64,000 nt of DNA, taken from assembly GCA_032358165.1 (NCBI GenBank), contig JAALGY010000057.1:868001-932000 (forward strand), written 5' to 3'. The stretch is from Diplosphaera chodatii. Its lineage: Eukaryota; Chlorophyta; Trebouxiophyceae; Prasiolales; Stichococcaceae. The position numbers were made by a program, and so were the translations under genes. Within the stretch, counting starts at the first letter, position 1, and every line of letters begins with the position of its first letter. Positions 13,979-25,391 of this stretch are shown piece by piece. Below the pieces are notes generated by a model, which made no database searches, had not been told where the DNA came from, and worked only from the letters and a program-made list of their open reading frames with translations.

Positions 13979-16900
13979 CTACGCAGCTGCAGCCCTCTTC
14001 TTTGCCCCTCGCTCCGCGATCATTGCCTGAATGACGTTTTTCACCGCCAGGTTGGCGACCAGGTTCTTGTGTGGCAGCTCGAGACCCTGCAAACACGGCA
14101 GAAGATGTCGAGCTCAACAGTGTTGGCACAGCATGCCACAGCAGTAGTGCGTGCCGACTGCATCACATCCTATTGGACAATTCGCGTGTCCCTGCACCAC
14201 TCACTGTCAAGGGTGATGTGCCCTTGGTAGCCAGCCACTCTTCAATGACTTCGCGCTCGTAAGTGTGGCCGTCAGCTGCACACAGACATTTTGATGTCGT
14301 CAGCACTCAGGTTGTCAGCATTACTTAGATAAAATGCTCTGCACTGGCACTTTCACATCGGCAGAGCTAGAATACAGACGCCGCGGGGTGGTTGTGAAGC
14401 TCACCGCACACGACAGGGTCGTCCATTAGCTCCTAAATCAGCAAACACATGCACCTCAGATACCTTACATGAAGGACCTCCGCTGACTGCACCAGCAAGG
14501 CATGATGTACGCTTGCTGACATGCAGCAGGTCAGACATGACGAACCATGCACACGCTGCGAACAGCAGCCTTACCTGCGTGATGGGGCTGCAAGCAGCAA
14601 CACACAACTTGTCAGCGTCAGTCTCGACATGCAGGTGCGGTTGCAATGTCGTTACACCGCCTGTCGCATGGTTGTACAGGACGGTGTGCACATGCAGATG
14701 CCTGAACCACGCACCACAGGTATGCCTCATCGATCTCGTCAGGGTCCAGGGATACCGCCGCTGCCGGAGGCGTTGGTGTGGCGACCACTGGGAGGGGTGC
14801 CAGCGCAACTACTGGAGTTGCTGCTGCTGGCACCGCCACTGCCGGCGGCGCAGCCGCAATAACCACGTCCTCATCGGCACTGCCATCAGCGCTGGCTGCA
14901 CCCTGTGCCACAGACGAGGCAGGCTTTGGGAAGTAGTCTACATCCTGCCACACAGCATGTTTCAACAGGTCAAACACATTGCTTCCGTCGCCGCTCCATG
15001 GCATGTGTGCAATCCATGTTTTGGCATGTCAAACAGCAGCACCTCATCGTCGGTCATGAGCACGTTGTAGCTGGATTGCGTCACGACAGCGCGCTGTTGC
15101 TGCGGCGCTGGCTTCGCAGCAGCCGCCGCCTGACGCCGCTGCCTCGGGTGCTGCGGTTGCGCTGCAGCAGGCGGCTCCGCAGCAGCGGACTGGCCCTGCC
15201 TCTTCCGCCGCTCTGCGAAGATCAGGAGTCCACCATGAGCAGGCACTGCTGACCATGACAACATGCTTCGTCGGCAGGCATTTTGGAAATTCTGGTTGCC
15301 AGGCAGGCTATCTGTGCATGATGCAGGGCCTATCTAGAGCTGAAACTGCGAGCTGCCACGGTACCCGCTTTCGAGGCGCTGGCTGCACGGGATGGCGACC
15401 CCGCCTGCTGGCCCATAGCGGCCCCCCGCGTGCGATCGCTGCTGCTGCGCTCCGCAGAGGTCGCAGCCGGCTGCCAGGCCTGCGGTGGGCTGCTTGGCAA
15501 AGCAGCTGCTTCCTGCTGCTGCTGGCGGCGCTGCTGCCGGCGGGACTGCGTGTGCGGCGGCGATGTGGGTGTGGCCGCGACGCTGGCAGCAGCATGCTCC
15601 TTCCTCTGCTGCCGCTGCTGCGCCTGCACTGCTGTCTTGGGCTGCTGCACCTGCACAACATAGCCTCGCTGAGGTCTGAAGTCATGTGCAGTTGCCATCG
15701 ACCAAGATGCGAGTGTCCCAGTGTGCAATGTAGATGTGCAGGCATGCTGGACGTGACATGTGCTGAACTGAGCAGGGACCAAGGACACGTCTGCACAGAA
15801 GCCACAGGCAATGCTTTCACATAGCAGGCAGGCGGCTTGGCGCCTGCACCTTCAGCTCCTTGGCAGCAGCGGCGGCACGCAGCCGCTCAGCCAGTGTCAG
15901 TGCCGGCGGTGGCGGCGCCGCCTGCACATGGTGCACGTACATGTCAACGCAGGGCATGCGGCAACCGCACAGTCCCCTCCGGCATTGCTCTGATATGGGA
16001 ACTTTTTGAAAAGACTTGGTTGAAGATGGCAGGCAGTAGTCACCGCCAGGGCCTTCTTTGCGGCCGCCTCGGCGACGGAAAGCGCCGACTGCGTGCTGGT
16101 GCGCTGCGCTGCCAGCCGCGTTGGTGAGGCGCTGGCCAGCGAAGGCCACAGCTCCGGCACCCCTGACGGCGGCGGCGGTGACGCCTGCTTCTGCTGCTGC
16201 AGCCAGTATGCAGCAATTGTTCTGCTTGCATGAAGTAGACACTCCAGCGTCGCAGGGTGCTGACCCGCATGTGCAGCTTTTAAGAAGACAACACTGTGTA
16301 CATGTTGCGCAAGACGTCACACGCACTGCTGTTGGCTTTGCTTGAGGCACAGAGGTGGCGGTGGCGGCGGCGGCCACCGGCCGAGCGGTGCTGCGCTGGG
16401 CTGGCGGCTGCGGCGCCGGCACTGCCGCTGCTGGGAACAGGGGCACGGGCGGTGCCATCGCCAGCAGCGTGGGCCACAGGTCGACGGGCTGCCCCGACGC
16501 CTGCGGCCAGCCGCCCGGCGGCGGCGGCGGCGGCTGGCGCTGCTGCGACGCCATCGGGTTGTACCTCGGACGCTGGGCCGCCGGTTTGGGTGTGGAGCTG
16601 ATATCGCCGCTGGCGGCGCTGCCGATGCTGCTGACGCTGCTGGCGACGGGGGCCCGGCTGGCGGGCGCTTCAGGGGGGGTGCGGATGCCCGCCAGCTGCT
16701 GCGGGGTCAGGCGCTGCGCCTTTGGCCTCTTGGCGGGCGAGGGGGCGGCGGGCGCCGGCAGCGGCGGCCACACAGGCGGCTGCTGGCCGTCCGCGCCGGG
16801 CTGCTGCTGCAGGGTGGCACGGACCGGGGAGCCCGCCTCCTCACTAGGGAAGAAGTGCGAAAACGCTGACTCCACCTGAAGGGTAAAACAAGTCCGTAGG

Positions 16901-19900
16901 TGCCTCGGAGTGAGCATGTGCCGACCTTCTGGGTCAAGCAGATGCAGATGCTATCCGTTCCTGGATGGACTGCCTAAGGCTACGGTGGTGGACCTGTGCG
17001 GACGACAGAATGCACTTCACCCAGCTCACCGATGGTTCCGGTGCCGCCTCTGGCACAGTAGCAGGCGCCGCAGCAGGAGCTGCAGCACACGGTGCCTCTT
17101 CAGGGACGACGGAATTGGCAATCCATACGGGCGCATCGACTGACAGCTTGCTGAGCTTTGCTGGCGCCTGCGCCGCCTCTGGCTGCTCTGCCTCCTGCTG
17201 TTTGGCCTCGGACGGAGCGCTTGGCTGCTGTGCCGCAGCCGCATCCGCTGCCGCAGGCTGCTGTGTGCCGCTGTCCTCAGCAGCAGGTGCCAGCTTATCC
17301 CTGTCGGCTGCCTCTGAGGTGACAGATGCTCCCGTGCCCTCTGGAGCAGCAGGCGTACTTGATTTGCTACCTGGCTGCACAGACGGCGACTCCGGCTTGC
17401 TGCCCGGCTGCACGAGCGGCGGCTCCGGCGTGCTGTCTGCTGGCACAGGCGGCGGCTCTGGCATGCTGTCTGGCTGGACAGACGGCGGCTCCGGCTTGCT
17501 GTCTAGCTGCACAGGCCGCGGCTCCGGCTTGCTGTCTGGCTGCATAGGAAGTGGCTCCGGCTTGCTGTCTAGCTGCACAGACGATGGCTTCGGCTTGCTG
17601 TCTGGCTGCACAGATGGTAGTTCTGCCTCAGCACCGGCACCGGCAGGTGCTGCTGTTGCTGCTTCATGAGTGTCGGGCGCGCTTGCATCAGCAGCTGCCG
17701 ACACAGCATCGTCTGGGGCTGCATTGGCACCGGCTGCCTCAACTTGTATGCTGTTGACAGTGCTGTTGCCGCCATTGCTGTCAGACTCGAGCTCCATTTG
17801 CGCCTGAGCAGATGCAGGATTGCCAAAGGAGCTGCTGCCATCTGCTGGTGCCTCTGCTTTGGCCTTGTTGCCATTGCTGTCAGACTCGGGCTTTGCCTGC
17901 GGCTGAGCAGGTGTAGTGTTGCCCGAGGAGCTGCTACCATCTGCTGGTGCCTCTGCTTTGGCCTTCGTGCCATTGCTGTCAGACTCGGGCTTCGCCTGCG
18001 GCTGAGCAGGTGTAGCACTGCCCGAGAAGCTGCTGCCATCTGCTGGTGCCTCTGCCTCGGCCCTGTTGCCGCTGGTGTCAGACGCTGGCCCTTCTTGTGC
18101 CTGAGCAGGGGCCACGTTGCCTGATCTGGTGCCATCTGCTGACGCCTCTGCCTCGGCCTTGTTGCCGCTGGTGTCAGACTCTGGCCCTGCTTGTGCCTGA
18201 GCAGGTGAAGCGGTGCCCGAGGAGCTGCTGCCATCTGCTGACGCCTCTGCCTCGGCCTTGTTGCCGCTGGTGTCAGACTCGGGCCCTGCCTGCGCCTGAG
18301 CAGGGGCAGCATTGCGAGATGATAAGCTGCTGCCATCTGCTGGCGCCTCAGCCTCAGCTTTCTCGCTGCTGCTGTCTGGCTTGTCAGCTGCAGGCAACTG
18401 AGCAGGGGCAGCATTGCCTGCGGAGCTGCTGCCATCTGCTGACGCCTCTGCCTTGGTGTTGTCGCTGCTACTGTCAGGCTCGGCAGCTGCAGGCGACTGA
18501 GCAGGGGCAGCAGTGCTGCTGCCATCTGCTGACGCATCGGCCTCGGCCTTGTCGCCGCTGCTGTCGGGAGGCAACTGAGCAGGGGCAGCAGCACCAGCAC
18601 TGGCGGGCATGCCTGCAGCCGCCTTCGCCTCTGGACTGCCTTTGCTGCTGAGGGACTTGGCCGTTGCTGCCGGCGCCGCCTGTGCAGCAGGGCTGCTGGG
18701 AGTTGCAGCTGGCGGCCTGGGTGGTGCCATGCTGCCAGTCGCTGTGCCATTCGCAGCCGGCTGCTGCAGCTCCACACGGCGGTTGGCCCACAGGTACTTC
18801 TGATACTGCTGCACCTGCCAGGGCTTCAGCAACGCCCTGCTGCTCTGCGGGAATGGCCACGGCTCCCCACCGTGTGCATACGGGCAGCTCCTCCCCAGCT
18901 TGCAGTGGCCCTGCAGGAAGATGTACACCACTTGTACGGTACCAGCAATGCCCACTTGATGCACACCACATGCACAGGTTTTGACACTTGGCCCGCATGT
19001 TCTGCATCCCAGGACGGACCACACACCTGCTGCCAGGCAGCGCAGACCTCCGTCTTGTACCACGGCTGGTCTGACATCAGAGGCCTGCCCTGCTGCGGGG
19101 CCCTTGGCAGCGTCTGGGGCACCTGCGGCGCAGCATGCGCTCCCATGCTCCAGGGTGGTGGCCCTCCATAGCCGACGCCCGGCATCGCCATCATGGGGTG
19201 GGACACGTACACTGGGCCCGCATACTGCTGGGCGGGGAGCTGCGGGGCGCTGGCCACATGAGACGGTGCCCCACGCTGCACATGCACCAGACGAGTCAAG
19301 TGACGACCAGCGCATTGCGATCATACAATCAAAAGATGAATTGCGTTTCCATGGCATGTGCAAGCTTGAAAACCGGTTTGCCAATCAGGTTGCGTCGTCA
19401 CTAAAACATGCACAAGGGTAGAACCCACCAGCTCATGGTGGCCATGCGCATATGGGCATTGTAGCGCCTTGGGGCAAACCCCGGAGTTCATAAAGCTGTA
19501 GCACAGCTGCGTCTTGTACAGAGGAAAGCCGCCCATGGCCGCGGCACAGTGGCCGCTGCCGGGTCCACCCATCCCATCGCCACCATATGCATACCCATAG
19601 CCTTCACCAGCGCTGAAACCATTGCCATGATGGCCATGGCCGCTGTAGCCGTTGCCATGCGCCCACGCCTCTGGGCTGTAGTATTCCTCGCTGTCATCGC
19701 CGTACTCGCCTTCAGTGTTGCCGCTGCCATCTGCGTAGTTGGCACTGTTGCCGTAGCCGCCTTCTGCTGCATACCCGCTCTCACCAAAGGCTGTGTTCAC
19801 AGCTGCCGATGCTGGGTCCCATGCTGCTTCTTCCTGAACCCAGCAACAAGCTCCACTTGCAGCGAATAGTGCAGCAGCTGTAACGAAAGAGCGATTGCAC

Positions 19901-20040
19901 ACTGCAGGGCAGAAGCCGGTCGCTGCCAGCCCAGCACATCATCGCACCGAATCTTCGTGAGCAAAGCGGCAGGCTGCTCCCGCGGCGCAGTGCCCCACAT
20001 TGTGATAGAAGTGGCACTTCTGCTTCGGGACGCTGGCCAT
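13979..20040 (-). CDS. CCCH zinc finger-U-box protein A
   Basis: Fourteen exons: 20040-19948, 19833-19429, 19275-19027, 18910-17030, 16875-16327, 16196-16044, 15921-15850, 15650-15365, 15212-15043, 14944-14715, 14587-14575, 14432-14405, 14275-14205, 14086-13979. All phases agree; total 4308 nt, 1435 residues. Three CCCH fingers lie at the N terminus: KCHFYHNVGHCAAGAACRFA (from residue 8, closing with His), YKTQLCYSFMNSGVCPKALQ (closing with CPYAH), and YKTEVC...GHCKLGRSCPYAH across intron 3. A long disordered Ala/Pro/Ser-rich middle follows, with two repeat arrays. The last about 75 residues form a U-box, the E2-binding fold of ubiquitin ligases: YLCPITQELMDDPVV, DGHTYEREVIEEWLATKGTS and LELPHKNLVANLAVKNVI. 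Domain roles suggest an RNA-binding E3 ligase; this is inferred. An in-frame TAG precedes the ATG region. The 13-nt exon encodes CPITQ. Confidence 0.8.
17356..17625 (-). repeat. coding minisatellite, about eight 11-residue units
   Basis: Within exon 4 of CCCH-U-box protein A, about eight 33-nt units encode variants of VQPDSKPEPxS, such as SVQLDSKPEPL, PMQPDSKPEPR and SVQPDSMPEPP. The array is in frame throughout. Units differ by a few residues, indicating repeated slippage or unequal exchange with selection for the open frame. Confidence 0.85.
17780..18580 (-). repeat. coding minisatellite, about eight 33-residue units
   Basis: Also in exon 4 of CCCH-U-box protein A. Units of about 99 nt encode a pattern SDxxGxKAEAEAxADGSSSS followed by GNxxPAQxQAxPE. 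About eight units can be counted, from PPDSSGDKAEADASADGSS to SDSNGNKAKAEAPADGSS. The two youngest-looking copies (near 17860-18060) are nearly identical. Variants lose one or two residues but keep frame. Confidence 0.9.
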
Positions 20041-20695
20041 GACAGCTTGACCAGAGCCTGACCGGCGGTCGCGCGGAAACTTCTGCCTCTCAACCGCAAA
20101 CTACAGGCGCGTAGGCGGCCAACGGTCTATGCAGACGTTCAAACGCAGGCTGTGTAGCACTGGAGCGGAGTCCAAGGTGGATGAGAACACGCTCTGCTCA
20201 CGATCATGCACAGCGCCTGCGCCAACATGCTGACTCACGTTGCAAGTGCAAGACAATGCTCGCACCCAGCATACTCTGTGATCGGTACGCAGACGCATCA
20301 TCCATGCTCAGATGGACAGCCCTGAGCTCACTGGTGAGGGCAGTAACAAGCTTGACCGTCGAATCAGTTCAACATGTAGCATTGCACTCCTTAGCCTCGC
20401 ACAGGCTGTGCCATGAGCTCACGTCAACTGTATCAAAAGACCTGGCTCTTGAAGTCCCGAACACGGTGAAGTGCAGTTGTGACCGTGCTGCTGCACGCTG
20501 CGACGGCCTATCTGGACATCTTGCGTCCACCCTGGCATGCAGATGGGAGATGGCAGACCAGATTCTCATTCCTTCCGCATGTGTCCACTACTCCATTTGA
20601 CCGACCGTGGCAAGCCAACAACCATGGCAATGACAAAGCGTGCGTACTCTCATTAGGCCGCTCGCAGGCAAATATGCAGGGTTTCTGCATGCTCA
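20041..20695. other. spacer between the two CCCH-U-box genes
   Basis: About 655 bp separates the stop of gene B from the start of gene A; both are on the minus strand. No supported ORF or RNA. It should hold the 3' end of B and the promoter of A. Confidence 0.6.
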
Positions 20696-23600
20696 TCATT
20701 TGCGGGCCTGTCGCTGCTTCATTGTGGCGGCAATAGCACACTTGACAGCTGTGTTCTCCATCAGCGTGCGGTGCGGCAGCTCCAACCCTGTCAGCGGGCT
20801 GGTCGTGCTCTTCTCCAGCCACCGCTCGATCACCTCCCTGTGGGTGCAGCACGCCTTGGATGTGAGCACAGCACTGACTGGAAGCACAATTGCACAACCT
20901 GCGTCTGTAGACGGAATGCCAGGCAGACAGCTTGCACTTCGGCTTTTTACCGTTCATAAGTGTGTCCATCCTGCAACAGTACAATGAGACAATGAGGCAC
21001 AGATTGTGTGCGACGTGTGCTGCAAGGTAGAGGGCGCAGAGAAGTTTACGTAGGACAGAAATATCTTGCAGACAAAGCAGCCATACAGTAATACAGCCTC
21101 ACCGCTGCAACAACCGGGTCCTTCAGGAGCTCTGCAGGACATCAACAGCAATGTAAGGGGACGGATCTGCACAACAAGTTTATTCATTGGCAACAGAACG
21201 TCCAGCACAAATCATGTGCATCTAGATTGGACTGTTAGCCTCACTGCCTCACCCTGAGTCACAGGGCAGAAGAATGAGCCGAGGACCTGCACAGCACGAC
21301 CCACATCGGTCGAAGGTTGCAAGCAGCTCAGCAATATGGATGCAGTCGATGACAGCAAAGCTTCAGGCAACGCATCGGAAGAGATGGACAGGGCTTTTGC
21401 ACCTCCTCGTCCAAATCTTCATCAGAATCGATGTTCAGCTCTGCCATGACATTGGCCAGCCCAGTCTTGTTGACATGACCATTCTGCGCAGGCAGTTGTG
21501 CTGGAGCTGCCACCGCAGGGGCCGGCGCCACTGCGCCGCTCGACCCAGTATCTGACCCTGCATCCGACCTGTCATCATCGGATGTGGCCAGCAGCCCGAA
21601 GGCCGACTGCTGGGCAAAGCCCGACTGCTGCTGCTTGCCTATCTGCTTGTGCAGGTGCTGCGCCTGTGACTGGCGTGGCTGCTGTCGTTGTTGCTGCTGC
21701 GGCTGCTGCTGCTGCTGGCGGCCCTTTGACTGGTGTGCCGAGGCAGGGCGAGGCGCCGACGTTGGCGGCGGCGGAGGCTGCGACCGCTGCTGAGGGGCTG
21801 AGCTGCCCCTTGGGTGCGACGCCGGGAGCTGGAACGCAGCCGGCACATCTGCCTGATGCTGCTGCCGAGGAGCTGCCGGCTGCTGATGCTGCGGCGGTGG
21901 TGGCGGCGGCTGCGGCTGCGGCTGTGTTGGCCCTGGCGGGGTGTTGCTGGTAGTGCCCATCTGCGGCGAGTAGGGCCTGTAGGGCCGCGGCCGCTGCTGT
22001 GCACCACCGGCACCTGGACAACACCCATCCGAAGCAGCTGCAGCAGGAGCTAGATCTGATCCCAAGTTTCCAGAGTGACACAGAAGTACACATGAGCGAC
22101 CAGACAGGCAGGCATGCATGATGCAGCAGAGTATCTTGTGAATCCAGGGAGGCACAGAAGTGACACAATTGGCACCTGCAGCAGTTCGCCCGGATGCTGC
22201 TGCGACTTGCCGCATCAGCTCTGCCGGATCTGCCGCAGGTGCTGGAGGCTTTTGAGGCTGCTGCTGCTGTGGCCGCTGCTGCTGCTGCTGCTGCTGGTGC
22301 TGCTGCTGCTGATAGTGGGCAGGTTGCGGATTCTTTCGGCGAACATCGGTCCCGCTGTACTGCGGACGCTTATCTGCCTCACCATGGGCGTATGTGCAGC
22401 TGTCGCCACGTGGGCAGTAGCCCTGGTGCTTCCAGAAGTTGCACATCACCTGAACACAAGCAGACGTCTTCATTGCTTCTTTTGATGCCTACCCCGAGTG
22501 GACGACAGAACAGACACAAGCTGACCATGCTGTGCATTTGCAGGGCGGTGATAGGTCAACAGGCGAGTGCCACTCACTGTCTTGTAGAAAGGCATATCAT
22601 CTGGGCGTTTGCCTGCACAACAACGACCTGCCGCAGTGATCCACAGCGCAACACCCGACAGTCAGGTAAGCACCCTGATGGGTGCTGGTGGGTTTAACGA
22701 CGCTACAATTCCTCAACCTGCCAGCAATGACGCATGACACCATGCTCACCCAGCCGGGCTAGCGCCTCACGGGTCAACAAAGGGTCCTGCGTGTTGGCTG
22801 CAGACCGCACACCGCTCAGCTGCTCCTGCGTCAGGCCGTCTGCACGCACCCTGCCGCTGCTGGCCCCACCGGAAGCGCTGCTTCCAGCGCTTCCAGGTCG
22901 GGTGTGGCCTGGGTGGTCGGATCCCCCTGCAGTCCCGCTGGGTGTGCTGCTGGCGGCGGGGAACTGCGGCACATCGTGACTGTAGTGGCAGGAGTCACCG
23001 TAGCTGCAGTGGCCGCGCTGGTAATGGTGGCACGGCAGTATACGATGCTGATGGTAGATGTGCTGCTGCTGGCCCTGCTGCTGCTGCTGCTGGGTGTCCC
23101 TACCGCCACGGGCCATCAGGCGAGCCTGCGCCATGTGCATTATTAGGTGTGGCGCAAACCACGCTGGAAGCACAGCATGCTTTGCCGGTATGCCTGAGGC
23201 ATGACAGGAGGCTGGTGACATGCATCTGCATGCTGTCTACACCCACCTCGGCCTGCCGCGCCTCGCGTGCCTGCCGTTCTAACACCAGCTGCTCCACGAA
23301 AGCGCCTGCTTTGTCTGCTGGCACATCTGATGGCGGGAGCAAGAAGCTGGCCGCCGACCCTTTGGCTGCAAAGCGTCATGTATCACCCTCAAAGGTCCGG
23401 GCATGCTTCTGCAGTCATCCACCATTCTGTGGATGACCCTGTGTTTGGAAAAAAGAGTGACAAGGACGCTACCTGGTTTGACACTGCGCGGGTTCGTCAC
23501 CTCCACTGCCGCTGCCTCCGCTGGCGGTCGCTGGCTTTGCTCCCGTTCTGCTGACCGCTGCGCCTGAGCATGCATGGTGTACAGGCGTCATGTATGTGAC

Positions 23601-24134
23601 AAGACTTGCAACACCAGCGGCAGTGCTTCCAGGCCAAGTCTGTAAACTCACAGAAAACAGGGAAAATTAAAGACCACCAGCTGCAAGCAGAGTGGGCATG
23701 CTGCCAGTATCAGCACCTGTCGCTGGAGGCGCTTCTCAGCCTTGCTGCCTTTGCCCTCGGCCTGTGACGCAGGCTGCGACTCATCGACCAGTCCCTCGAG
23801 CACCGAGTAGTCCTGGCAGCGATGCATGAGAGAGGATGAGACGATGATTGGTTCGCACGTCACCAGGACAGATGCATCACCGACAGGAGACGTTTCTGCA
23901 GATGCGCCACTGGCATACTGATATAAGGTACAGCCACCTTCTATTCAGGTGTCGGTACATACATGAGCCTGATTGCACATCCAGAGACGCATGTTGCTGC
24001 ATACCCTCAGCATCCCGTGGCAACAGCGTGTTCAGCACCAGGTACCTTACCTCGAAGTCCGAGAGAGTGCATGCATGCAATTTGCTTGGTGAACAATGGA
24101 GCGGCTGCGTTTTGGAGAAGTTTATCACACGCAT
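20696..24134 (-). CDS. CCCH zinc finger-U-box protein B
   Basis: Twelve exons: 24134-24051, 23812-23717, 23557-23473, 23365-23247, 23125-22750, 22600-22578, 22449-22176, 22013-21403, 21286-21253, 21131-21103, 20970-20951, 20837-20696. Phases agree; 1893 nt, 630 residues. Two CCCH fingers: PCHHYQRGHCSYGDSCHYSH, and FYKTVMCNFWKHQGYCPRGD (closing SCTYAHGE), the latter spliced through a 23-nt exon. A Gln/Pro-rich linker follows. The C terminus is a U-box spread over four tiny exons plus the last: SFFCPVTQELLKDPVVAA, DGHTYEREVIERWLEKSTTS, LELPHRTLMENTAVKCAI. A shared LTxxQLxGxR motif and the same domain order mark it as a paralog of protein A directly downstream. The first exon and start (ATG at 24134) are the weakest part. 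Likely an RNA-associated E3 ubiquitin ligase, by inference. Confidence 0.8.
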
Positions 24135-24500
24135 TCTCTCACTCAGCTCACCATGCTGTATGCAGCCGTCTAAAGTCCTCGCGATGCGACGCTCTTTCAC
24201 GAGTGGATGGCCATATGAGGGCAAGCGGCAAGCGCGTGAATTTGCCTCGAACCCACCTGCGCTCTACTTGAAGCAGACATACTTCCTATGCTTAGCAGAA
24301 GTCAACATTGAGCGGGCATCGCCTGCGCGGCTCCCAAACATCAGCAGTAGTATATTATCATGTGTAGGTTTAACGAGCCAGATGATGCAGCCAGCGGCGC
24401 TCCTGGCAGCTGCAAAACCACAGGTTTGACGACACCCTGAGGCAATGAACTGCTGATTTGTGGTACGTGAGTTGGATCGACAGCTGCGCCGCCAGCGCCC
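24135..24500. promoter_or_regulatory. divergent promoter region
   Basis: About 366 bp between the divergently transcribed CCCH-U-box gene B and plastid ribosomal protein L3. It must hold both promoters; no specific element was identified. Confidence 0.4.
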
Positions 24501-25391
24501 ATGGCAGCCATGGGGGCCCTCGGGTCTCGGCAGATGTTTGCTCAGTTCCAGGGCCTGCGCGTCAGCAGCCCAGCAGGCAGCGCTAGGCCCTGCGTGCCAG
24601 CGGTCTCAGCCCAGCGCCGGTGCCAGCTCGCCCGGCTGCAGGTGTCAGCGCGGCAGGGCGAGGTGTCGGTCGGCCTGTTTGGCACCAAGGCAGGCATGAC
24701 CCAGATCTTCACAGACGACGGCCTGGCGCTGCCCGCCACCGTCATCGCGTTGGAGGATGGCAACGTCGTTGCGCAGATTAAGACAGTAGACACAGACGGC
24801 TACAACGCCGTGCAGGTCGGCTACCGTGTGAAGAAGGAGGACAAGCTCACTAAGCCGGAGCTGGGCCACCTCAAAAAGCACAATGCGCCGCCGATGCGCA
24901 AGATGCGGGAGTTCAAGCTCCAGGAGAAGCCGGAGGGCTATGAGCCAGGACAGCAGCTCAAGGTCAGCGAGATGTTCAAGGAGGGTGACCTCGTGGACGT
25001 TGCCGGTACCACCATCGGCAAGGGGTTCCAGGGCAGCATCAAGAGGTGGGGCATGGCGCGGGGCAACATGACGCACGGCTCCAAGTCGAAGCGGCAGCAT
25101 GGCTCCATTGGTATGTGCGCGACACCGGCCCGCGTCTTCCCCGGCCTGAAGATGGCTGGCCACATGGGCTCCGTGCGCCGGAAAACACGCAAGCTCAAGG
25201 TGATCAGGGTGGATGAGGAGCGCGGCGCCATCGTGGTGCACGGCAGCGTGCCCGGCAAGCCTGGCAACGTCCTGGAGATCACGCCCGCGAAGATCGTCGG
25301 GCGGACGTGGAAGTACCAGAGGAACCTTTCCCCCTCAAAGTCAGAGGTCAAGGAGAAGTTCGAGGCAATTGCACAGGCGACAGCCGCCTGA
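24501..25391 (+). CDS. RPL3: plastid 50S ribosomal protein L3 (uL3c)
   Basis: A single-exon gene of 296 codons. The first about 50 residues are rich in Ala, Ser, Arg and Gln and lack acidic residues, as in a chloroplast transit peptide. The mature part starts VSVGLFGTKAGMTQIFTDDG, the hallmark of bacterial-type L3. Later motifs include GTTIGKGFQGSIKRWGMARG, THGSKSKRQHGSIG and RVFPGLKMAGHMG, the loop that reaches the peptidyl-transferase centre. It is a structural protein of the plastid large ribosomal subunit and binds 23S rRNA. It is one of the few intronless genes here. The ATG at 24501 is the second of two close ATG codons in an ATGGCAGCCATGG context. Confidence 0.96.
   Translation: MAAMGALGSRQMFAQFQGLRVSSPAGSARPCVPAVSAQRRCQLARLQVSARQGEVSVGLFGTKAGMTQIFTDDGLALPATVIALEDGNVVAQIKTVDTDGYNAVQVGYRVKKEDKLTKPELGHLKKHNAPPMRKMREFKLQEKPEGYEPGQQLKVSEMFKEGDLVDVAGTTIGKGFQGSIKRWGMARGNMTHGSKSKRQHGSIGMCATPARVFPGLKMAGHMGSVRRKTRKLKVIRVDEERGAIVVHGSVPGKPGNVLEITPAKIVGRTWKYQRNLSPSKSEVKEKFEAIAQATAA

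What the first reader, a model, noticed from the sequence alone, without database searches (positions are those of the whole stretch)
13979..24134. Tandem pair of CCCH zinc finger-U-box fusion genes
Two adjacent same-strand genes each encode N-terminal CCCH fingers (three in A, two in B), a long disordered linker with a shared LTxxQLxGxR motif, and a C-terminal U-box. All splice phases close in both models, so the fusions are not simply neighbouring genes read together. CCCH fingers usually bind RNA and U-boxes recruit E2 enzymes. RING-CCCH ligases are well known; a CCCH-U-box architecture is much less familiar to me. This could be a pathway that ubiquitinates proteins on selected RNAs.
Basis: partly seen in the sequence, partly recalled or inferred. 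Interest (0 to 1): 0.8.

Follow-up and report, generated by a model that had tools for sequence, protein, structure and literature searches.

The report
Tandem CCCH-finger/U-box ubiquitin ligase genes
Two neighbouring genes, probably of a green alga, each join RNA-binding-type zinc fingers to a ubiquitin-ligase U-box; the fusion looks real and conserved, and is an uncommon variant of a known kind of protein whose function remains to be tested.

Summary
Gene A (14 exons, 20040-13979, minus strand) joins three CCCH fingers to a C-terminal U-box; gene B (12 exons, 24154-20696, minus) joins two. A second copy of the pair on a collinear contig (C46, about 76% DNA identity) keeps nearly all frames and every aligned splice dinucleotide, has exons far better conserved than introns, and lacks A's intron 13 exactly at the predicted junction. 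A public 604-aa protein, P0001, has B's architecture uninterrupted, so B is not two genes read together. No transcript of A was seen. Corrections: B starts at 24154, not 24134; A's exon 10 more likely starts at 14902. A and B are sister duplicates (U-box clade support 97). Best reading: RNA-binding E3 ligases acting on mRNP or ribosome-associated proteins; inferred, not shown. The architecture is uncommon but not unprecedented: a kinetoplastid CCCH/U-box protein was listed in 2010. A also carries a conserved PAM2w-like peptide, a weak hint of docking on poly(A)-binding protein.

The parts
13979..20040 (-). Gene A, 14 exons, 1421 aa in the corrected model: 20040-19948, 19833-19429, 19275-19027, 18910-17030, 16875-16327, 16196-16044, 15921-15850, 15650-15365, 15212-15043, 14902-14715, 14587-14575, 14432-14405, 14275-14205, 14086-13979
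   Evidence: C46 copy; the E5/E6 boundary is the least certain
20696..24154 (-). Gene B, 12 exons, 607 aa in the corrected model: 24154-24152, 23812-23717, 23557-23473, 23365-23247, 23125-22750, 22612-22578, 22449-22176, 22013-21403, 21286-21253, 21131-21103, 20970-20951, 20837-20696
   Evidence: P0001
19957..20016 (-). A finger 1, C-x8-C-x5-C-x3-H (aa 9-28); its first Cys is Trp in the C46 copy
19444..19503 (-). A finger 2, C-x8-C-x5-C-x3-H (aa 142-161)
18872..19044 (-). A finger 3, C-x7-C-x5-C-x3-H (aa 244-262), split by the intron between E3 and E4
17123..17146 (-). PAM2w-like peptide LSVDAPVW (aa 838-845) in the variable linker of A
   Evidence: not recognised by Pfam
16681..16710 (-). LTPQQLAGIR motif of A (aa 932-941), inside a linker block found only at the two copies of A in the genome
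15043..15066 (-). acidic motif NVLMTDDE of A (aa 1279-1286), identical in C46; aligns with FGLLATSDDD of B
14009..14728 (-). A U-box (aa 1345-1412), E10-E14; intron 13 inside it is absent in C46
22976..23032 (-). B finger 1, C-x7-C-x5-C-x3-H (aa 133-151)
22805..22834 (-). LTQEQLSGVR motif of B (aa 199-208), between the two fingers
22384..22443 (-). B finger 2, C-x8-C-x5-C-x3-H (aa 241-260)
21571..21600 (-). acidic motif FGLLATSDDD of B (aa 468-477)
20708..21274 (-). B U-box (aa 538-604), E9-E12

Best explanation
A and B are old tandem duplicates that encode RNA-binding U-box E3 ubiquitin ligases. The CCCH fingers anchor the protein to RNA, the long disordered linker with its short conserved motifs docks partners, and the C-terminal U-box recruits an E2 to ubiquitinate proteins on the bound mRNP or ribosome. 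Shown from sequence: the fusion, its conservation and the duplication. Inferred from the families: RNA binding and ligase activity. Unknown: RNA targets and substrates.
For: Pfam domains. The Cys/His ligands of all five fingers are present in the window genes, with aromatic residues at the positions that I recall as stacking on RNA in TTP-type fingers. By sequence the nearest solved structures are U-boxes of PUB12, LubX and CHIP and, for B finger 2, Roquin-1 and tristetraprolin fingers. U-boxes and fingers are constrained between the two copies: dN/dS 0.10 (A U-box) and 0.14-0.23 (A fingers); dN 0 for B U-box and B finger 1, 0.15 for B finger 2; against 0.56 and 0.38 in the linkers. Fingers and U-box stay in one open frame in P0001. 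A and B U-boxes form one clade. A CCCH-RING ligase, MKRN1, ubiquitinates RPS10 and PABPC1 (PMC6805484, abstract and passages).
Against: No experiment. A finger 1 has lost its first Cys in the C46 copy, so it is not essential there. Other stretches are as constrained as the fingers or more so (B N-terminal helix 0.026, B spacer with the LT motif 0.12, A lead to the U-box 0.13), so protein contacts may matter as much as RNA. The fingers lie 82-113 residues apart. The AlphaFold model of P0001 was poor (mean pLDDT 56.6). No relative of A's finger region was found: 4938 candidates, none at E <= 0.001.
Confidence: 0.55

Rival explanations
1. The proteins are mainly mRNA regulators, and the U-box serves to ubiquitinate and remove the protein itself, so that its level responds quickly to signals.
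For: Auto-ubiquitination is usual for E3s; MKRN1 auto-ubiquitinates in vitro (PMC6805484 passage). The U-box is the C-terminal end of a long disordered chain.
Against: Nothing here separates self from other substrates.
Confidence: 0.2
2. The CCCH fingers hold protein substrates or partners rather than RNA, and A and B are ordinary U-box ligases with finger-type substrate receptors.
For: In A the C46 copy tolerates loss of a zinc ligand in finger 1, and non-finger stretches are strongly conserved.
Against: Four of five fingers keep all ligands in both copies and match Pfam's RNA-binding-type zf-CCCH.
Confidence: 0.12
3. One or both fusions are artefacts: neighbouring genes joined by the model, or decaying copies.
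For: No transcript of A was seen; parts of A's linker model differ between copies.
Against: Conserved frames and splice dinucleotides, exact intron loss inside the A U-box, dN/dS well below 1, and P0001 for B.
Confidence: 0.03

Closest known systems
Kinetoplastid CCCH protein with a U-box (one listed in the 2010 screen, PMC2873481)
   Same: CCCH finger(s) and a U-box in one protein, proposed there as a putative E3 ligase
   Different: Unrelated lineage; I saw passages only, not its sequence, so homology and domain order were not compared
Makorin (MKRN1) and other CCCH-RING ligases
   Same: CCCH fingers plus an E3 module; MKRN1 also has a PAM2 motif, of which A has a look-alike
   Different: U-box instead of RING, at the C-terminus and far from the fingers; this genome has a separate CCCH-RING gene pair on C7 and C18
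Prp19 (PRPF19), a U-box ligase counted among RNA-binding ubiquitin ligases (PMC5707401 passages)
   Same: U-box ligase tied to RNA work
   Different: Prp19 has an N-terminal U-box and WD40 repeats, no CCCH
Plant and algal U-box (PUB) proteins
   Same: Typical U-box; PUB12 and CHIP are among the nearest solved structures
   Different: No armadillo, kinase, WD40 or TPR match in A or B; no CCCH among the 13 extra domains named for 30 Chlamydomonas PUBs
Tristetraprolin and Roquin CCCH proteins
   Same: B finger 2 matches their fingers by sequence
   Different: Fingers far apart, not a close tandem pair; no RING or ROQ domain match

Membership tests
CCCH zinc-finger proteins | C-x7/8-C-x5-C-x3-H fingers above the Pfam cut-off | tested here: met
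   A 3 stretches, B 2 stretches
CCCH zinc-finger proteins | RNA binding | not testable with these tools
   needs pull-down or CLIP
U-box E3 ligases | U-box domain above the Pfam cut-off | tested here: met
   63.6 and 61.4 bits, cut-off 21.4
U-box E3 ligases | E2-dependent ubiquitin transfer | not testable with these tools
   needs an in vitro assay
RNA-binding ubiquitin ligases (RBULs) | RNA-binding-type domain and ligase domain in one polypeptide | tested here: met
   met by domain content; B supported by P0001, A by the C46 copy
Makorin | C3HC4 RING | tested here: not met
   RING-type profiles only below their cut-offs in A and B
Makorin | PAM2 motif (PABP docking) | tested here: inconclusive
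   A has LSVDAPVW, conserved as LSVEAPVW in C46, pattern in 3% of shuffles, no Pfam match; B has none
Tristetraprolin tandem-finger class | two CCCH fingers a short, fixed distance apart (about 18 residues, recalled) | tested here: not met
   82-113 residues between fingers (positions)
Kinetoplastid CCCH/U-box protein | common descent of the fusion | not tested

The most novel reading that the evidence does not exclude
[quoted passage not shown] With its duplicate B it would form an algal branch of poly(A)- or ribosome-linked quality control working beside a normal CCCH-RING ligase.
Probability: 0.12. Interest if true: 0.65.

Novelty: new variant of a known kind. Interest (0 to 1): 0.42.

Why it matters
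RNA-binding ubiquitin ligases link mRNA fate to protein turnover; one review-type passage that I saw defines them by HECT, RING or RBR domains (PMC5707401). A conserved, duplicated CCCH/U-box pair in an algal lineage would show the CCCH combination built with a different ligase module, and offers a compact pair in which to ask which RNAs and which substrates such ligases choose.

Tried and rejected
'Replaces Makorin': rejected, since CCCH and RING matches lie about 1.3 kb apart on one strand on both C7 and C18 and unaltered stretches of C7 match both. TTP tandem-finger class: rejected on spacing. AlphaFold of P0001: mean pLDDT 56.6, so no fold search was run. Linkers of A and B compared without gaps: best score 92, equal to the best of 60 shuffles, so no linker homology beyond short motifs can be claimed from that test. 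PAM2w-like peptide: no Pfam match, pattern in 3% of shuffles of A; a lead only. Loose regex for CCCH in 32 other U-box loci (about 1.5 kb either side): 11 of 32 gave matches, none of them at a place of the zf-CCCH profile list. In one search the printed U-box translations of minus-strand loci were on the wrong strand; corrected (the regex read six frames). Literature: 10 searches; the listings showed no paper about a plant or algal CCCH/U-box protein, in this library only; the one paper holding both 'U-box' and 'zf-CCCH' (on WD40 proteins) was not opened. Papers: named sections of PMC4378952 (15, 16, abstract); abstract and passages of PMC6805484; passages of PMC2873481, PMC5707401, PMC7356810, PMC8875423, PMC3087547, PMC8409312; the rest only as listings.

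Full report
What is there. On the minus strand between 13979 and 24154 lie two genes. Gene B (24154-20696) comes first in transcription order, gene A (20040-13979) follows 655 bases later. With GT-AG introns both read from ATG to stop. A encodes 1421 aa: three CCCH fingers, about a thousand residues of low-complexity linker, and a C-terminal U-box. B encodes 607 aa: an N-terminal helical stretch, two CCCH fingers with the LTQEQLSGVR motif between them, a Q- and P-rich linker, and a C-terminal U-box. Pfam finds the U-boxes at 63.6 and 61.4 bits (cut-off 21.4) and three and two zf-CCCH stretches.

Test of the gene models. The window lies at C49:868001-932000 of an 85.6 Mb assembly in 55 contigs. 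The zf-CCCH search showed a second set of fingers on C46 with the same spacing. C46 is collinear with the window from 357 to 35764, at roughly 68-91% identity per aligned piece and 76-77% over the two genes. Projecting the exons: exons 77-100% identical, introns 50-80%; every GT and AG that aligns is kept (12 of A's 13 introns; B introns 2-11; the ATG|GTGAGC junction of B). A's intron 13, inside the U-box, is missing in C46 exactly at the predicted junction, which confirms that splice. B's exon 1 at 24134-24051 is only 56% identical and out of frame in C46; the conserved start is the ATG at 24154-24152 directly before the donor. A's exon 10 keeps frame in both copies only if it starts at 14902. 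At the E5/E6 boundary C46 needs a donor 4 bases further on. With these choices all four models (two genes, two copies) are open from start to stop.

Selection. Between the copies dN/dS is 0.10 for A's U-box, 0.15, 0.23 and 0.14 for its fingers (the third with 40 following residues), 0.22 for the block with LTPQQLAGIR, and 0.56 for the long E4 linker. For B, dN is 0 in the U-box (dS 0.25) and in finger 1 (dS 0.90), 0.15 for dN/dS around finger 2, 0.026 in the N-terminal helix, 0.12 in the spacer with the LT motif and 0.38 in the linker. Short regions have few sites, so these are rough. Against a strict need for every finger: A's finger 1 has Trp for its first Cys in C46, and Pfam finds only two passing zf-CCCH stretches in that copy's first 308 residues.

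Relatives elsewhere. Three searches of the large protein set were made. B alone gave 3 proteins, a B-family alignment 13, A's residues 1-330 none among 4938 candidates. Of the 14 distinct proteins P0001-P0014, one, P0001 (604 aa, source tag 'lgn', longest contig 5061 bases), carries both zf-CCCH and U-box. It matches B over its whole length at 54% identity and is one open frame where B has 11 introns, which looks like a transcript assembly; the tool does not say so, and an intron-poor genome would look the same. Seven or so others (P0002, P0004-P0010, P0012) look like single exons of B-type genes, some running into introns; whether their genes end in a U-box could not be seen.

Origin of the pair. 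A query with B's U-box found, after the two B copies, the A copy on C46 (64% over 56 residues); A itself matched at 62% over a 34-residue exon piece with a weaker score; the next full-length matches had 45-51%, and some short fragments up to 58% over 26 residues. In a tree of 40 U-boxes (32 of the genome's more than 150 matches, the four gene copies, P0001, P0003, P0013, P0014), A, B and P0001 form a clade with support 97, B with P0001 92, A copies 99. So A and B are duplicates of each other, and the duplication is older than the split from P0001's lineage; the sampling of the family was partial. A linker block of A around LTPQQLAGIR occurs only at the two copies of A (2 matches of 17 candidates).

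How common is it. In this genome the zf-CCCH profile gives 33 exon matches (76 of 76 candidates scored) and the U-box profile 151 listed (150 of 231 candidates scored). Reading the lists by eye, only A/B and their C46 copies bring both within 10 kb; intron-split domains are missed, as A's own U-box was. In print: a kinetoplastid CCCH screen lists one U-box type CCCH protein (PMC2873481 passages); a Chlamydomonas survey of 30 U-box proteins names 13 additional domains, among them RRM but not CCCH (PMC4378952, section 15).

Mechanism. The simplest reading is a reader-writer protein: fingers hold RNA, the U-box brings an E2, and nearby proteins are ubiquitinated. CCCH-RING Makorin is the model: MKRN1 binds PABPC1 through PAM2, sits upstream of poly(A), and ubiquitinates RPS10 and PABPC1 (PMC6805484, abstract and passages). 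A has a peptide LSVDAPVW (LSVEAPVW in C46) fitting L[N/S]xxAxx[F/W]; the LARP4/4B variant PAM2w has Trp at that place, with consensus LNxxAxx[F/W] (PMC7356810 passages). It lies in one of the best-kept 15-residue windows of the E4 linker (2 of 565 windows score as high), yet the pattern turns up in 3% of shuffles of A, the second position is Ser rather than Asn, the residue after next is Ala rather than Pro, and Pfam does not see it. MLLE, its would-be partner, is encoded in two places. B has no such peptide. I treat this as a lead.

Verdict. Real, conserved, and uncommon; a new variant of the known class of RNA-binding ubiquitin ligases rather than a new kind of system.

Noticed in passing
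Those looked at end in a C-terminal U-box after an alanine- and lysine-rich stretch.
   Followed up: partly
G000:C49:850-856k (12-18 kb before the window) and C46:647-653k; loci L036, L042, L043: A second kind of finger/U-box fusion close by: C2H2-like patterns (C-x2-C...H...H, by regex; not recognised by Pfam) followed by a C-terminal U-box in one open frame. Their U-boxes do not group with those of A and B.
   Followed up: partly
window 357-35764 against C46:664.9-700k: The assembly appears to hold two collinear, strongly diverged gene sets (about 76% identity over A and B); many single-copy matches come in pairs on different contigs. A hybrid, an old duplication or two organisms could explain it.
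   Followed up: partly
G000:C7:486552-488017 and C18:547252-548710 (L058): CCCH and RING matches about 1.3 kb apart on one strand, with a further weak CCCH pattern downstream on C7: a Makorin-like arrangement.
   Followed up: partly
14087-14204: Intron 13 of gene A is exactly absent in the C46 copy: a clean intron loss or gain inside the U-box.
   Followed up: yes
17030-18910: Exon 4 of A holds imperfect repeats of about 33 residues (PESDTSGNKAEAEA...) and PDSKPEP repeats; it is 1881 bases here and 1524 in C46.
   Followed up: no
23247-23473: B's stretch SAASFLLPPSDVP...FVEQLVLERQARE is nearly invariant in its relatives and matches no Pfam family.
   Followed up: no
24471-25391: Plus-strand gene for bacterial-type ribosomal protein L3 (TIGR03625, 246.9 bits), an organelle-type protein encoded in the nucleus, beside gene B.
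   Followed up: yes
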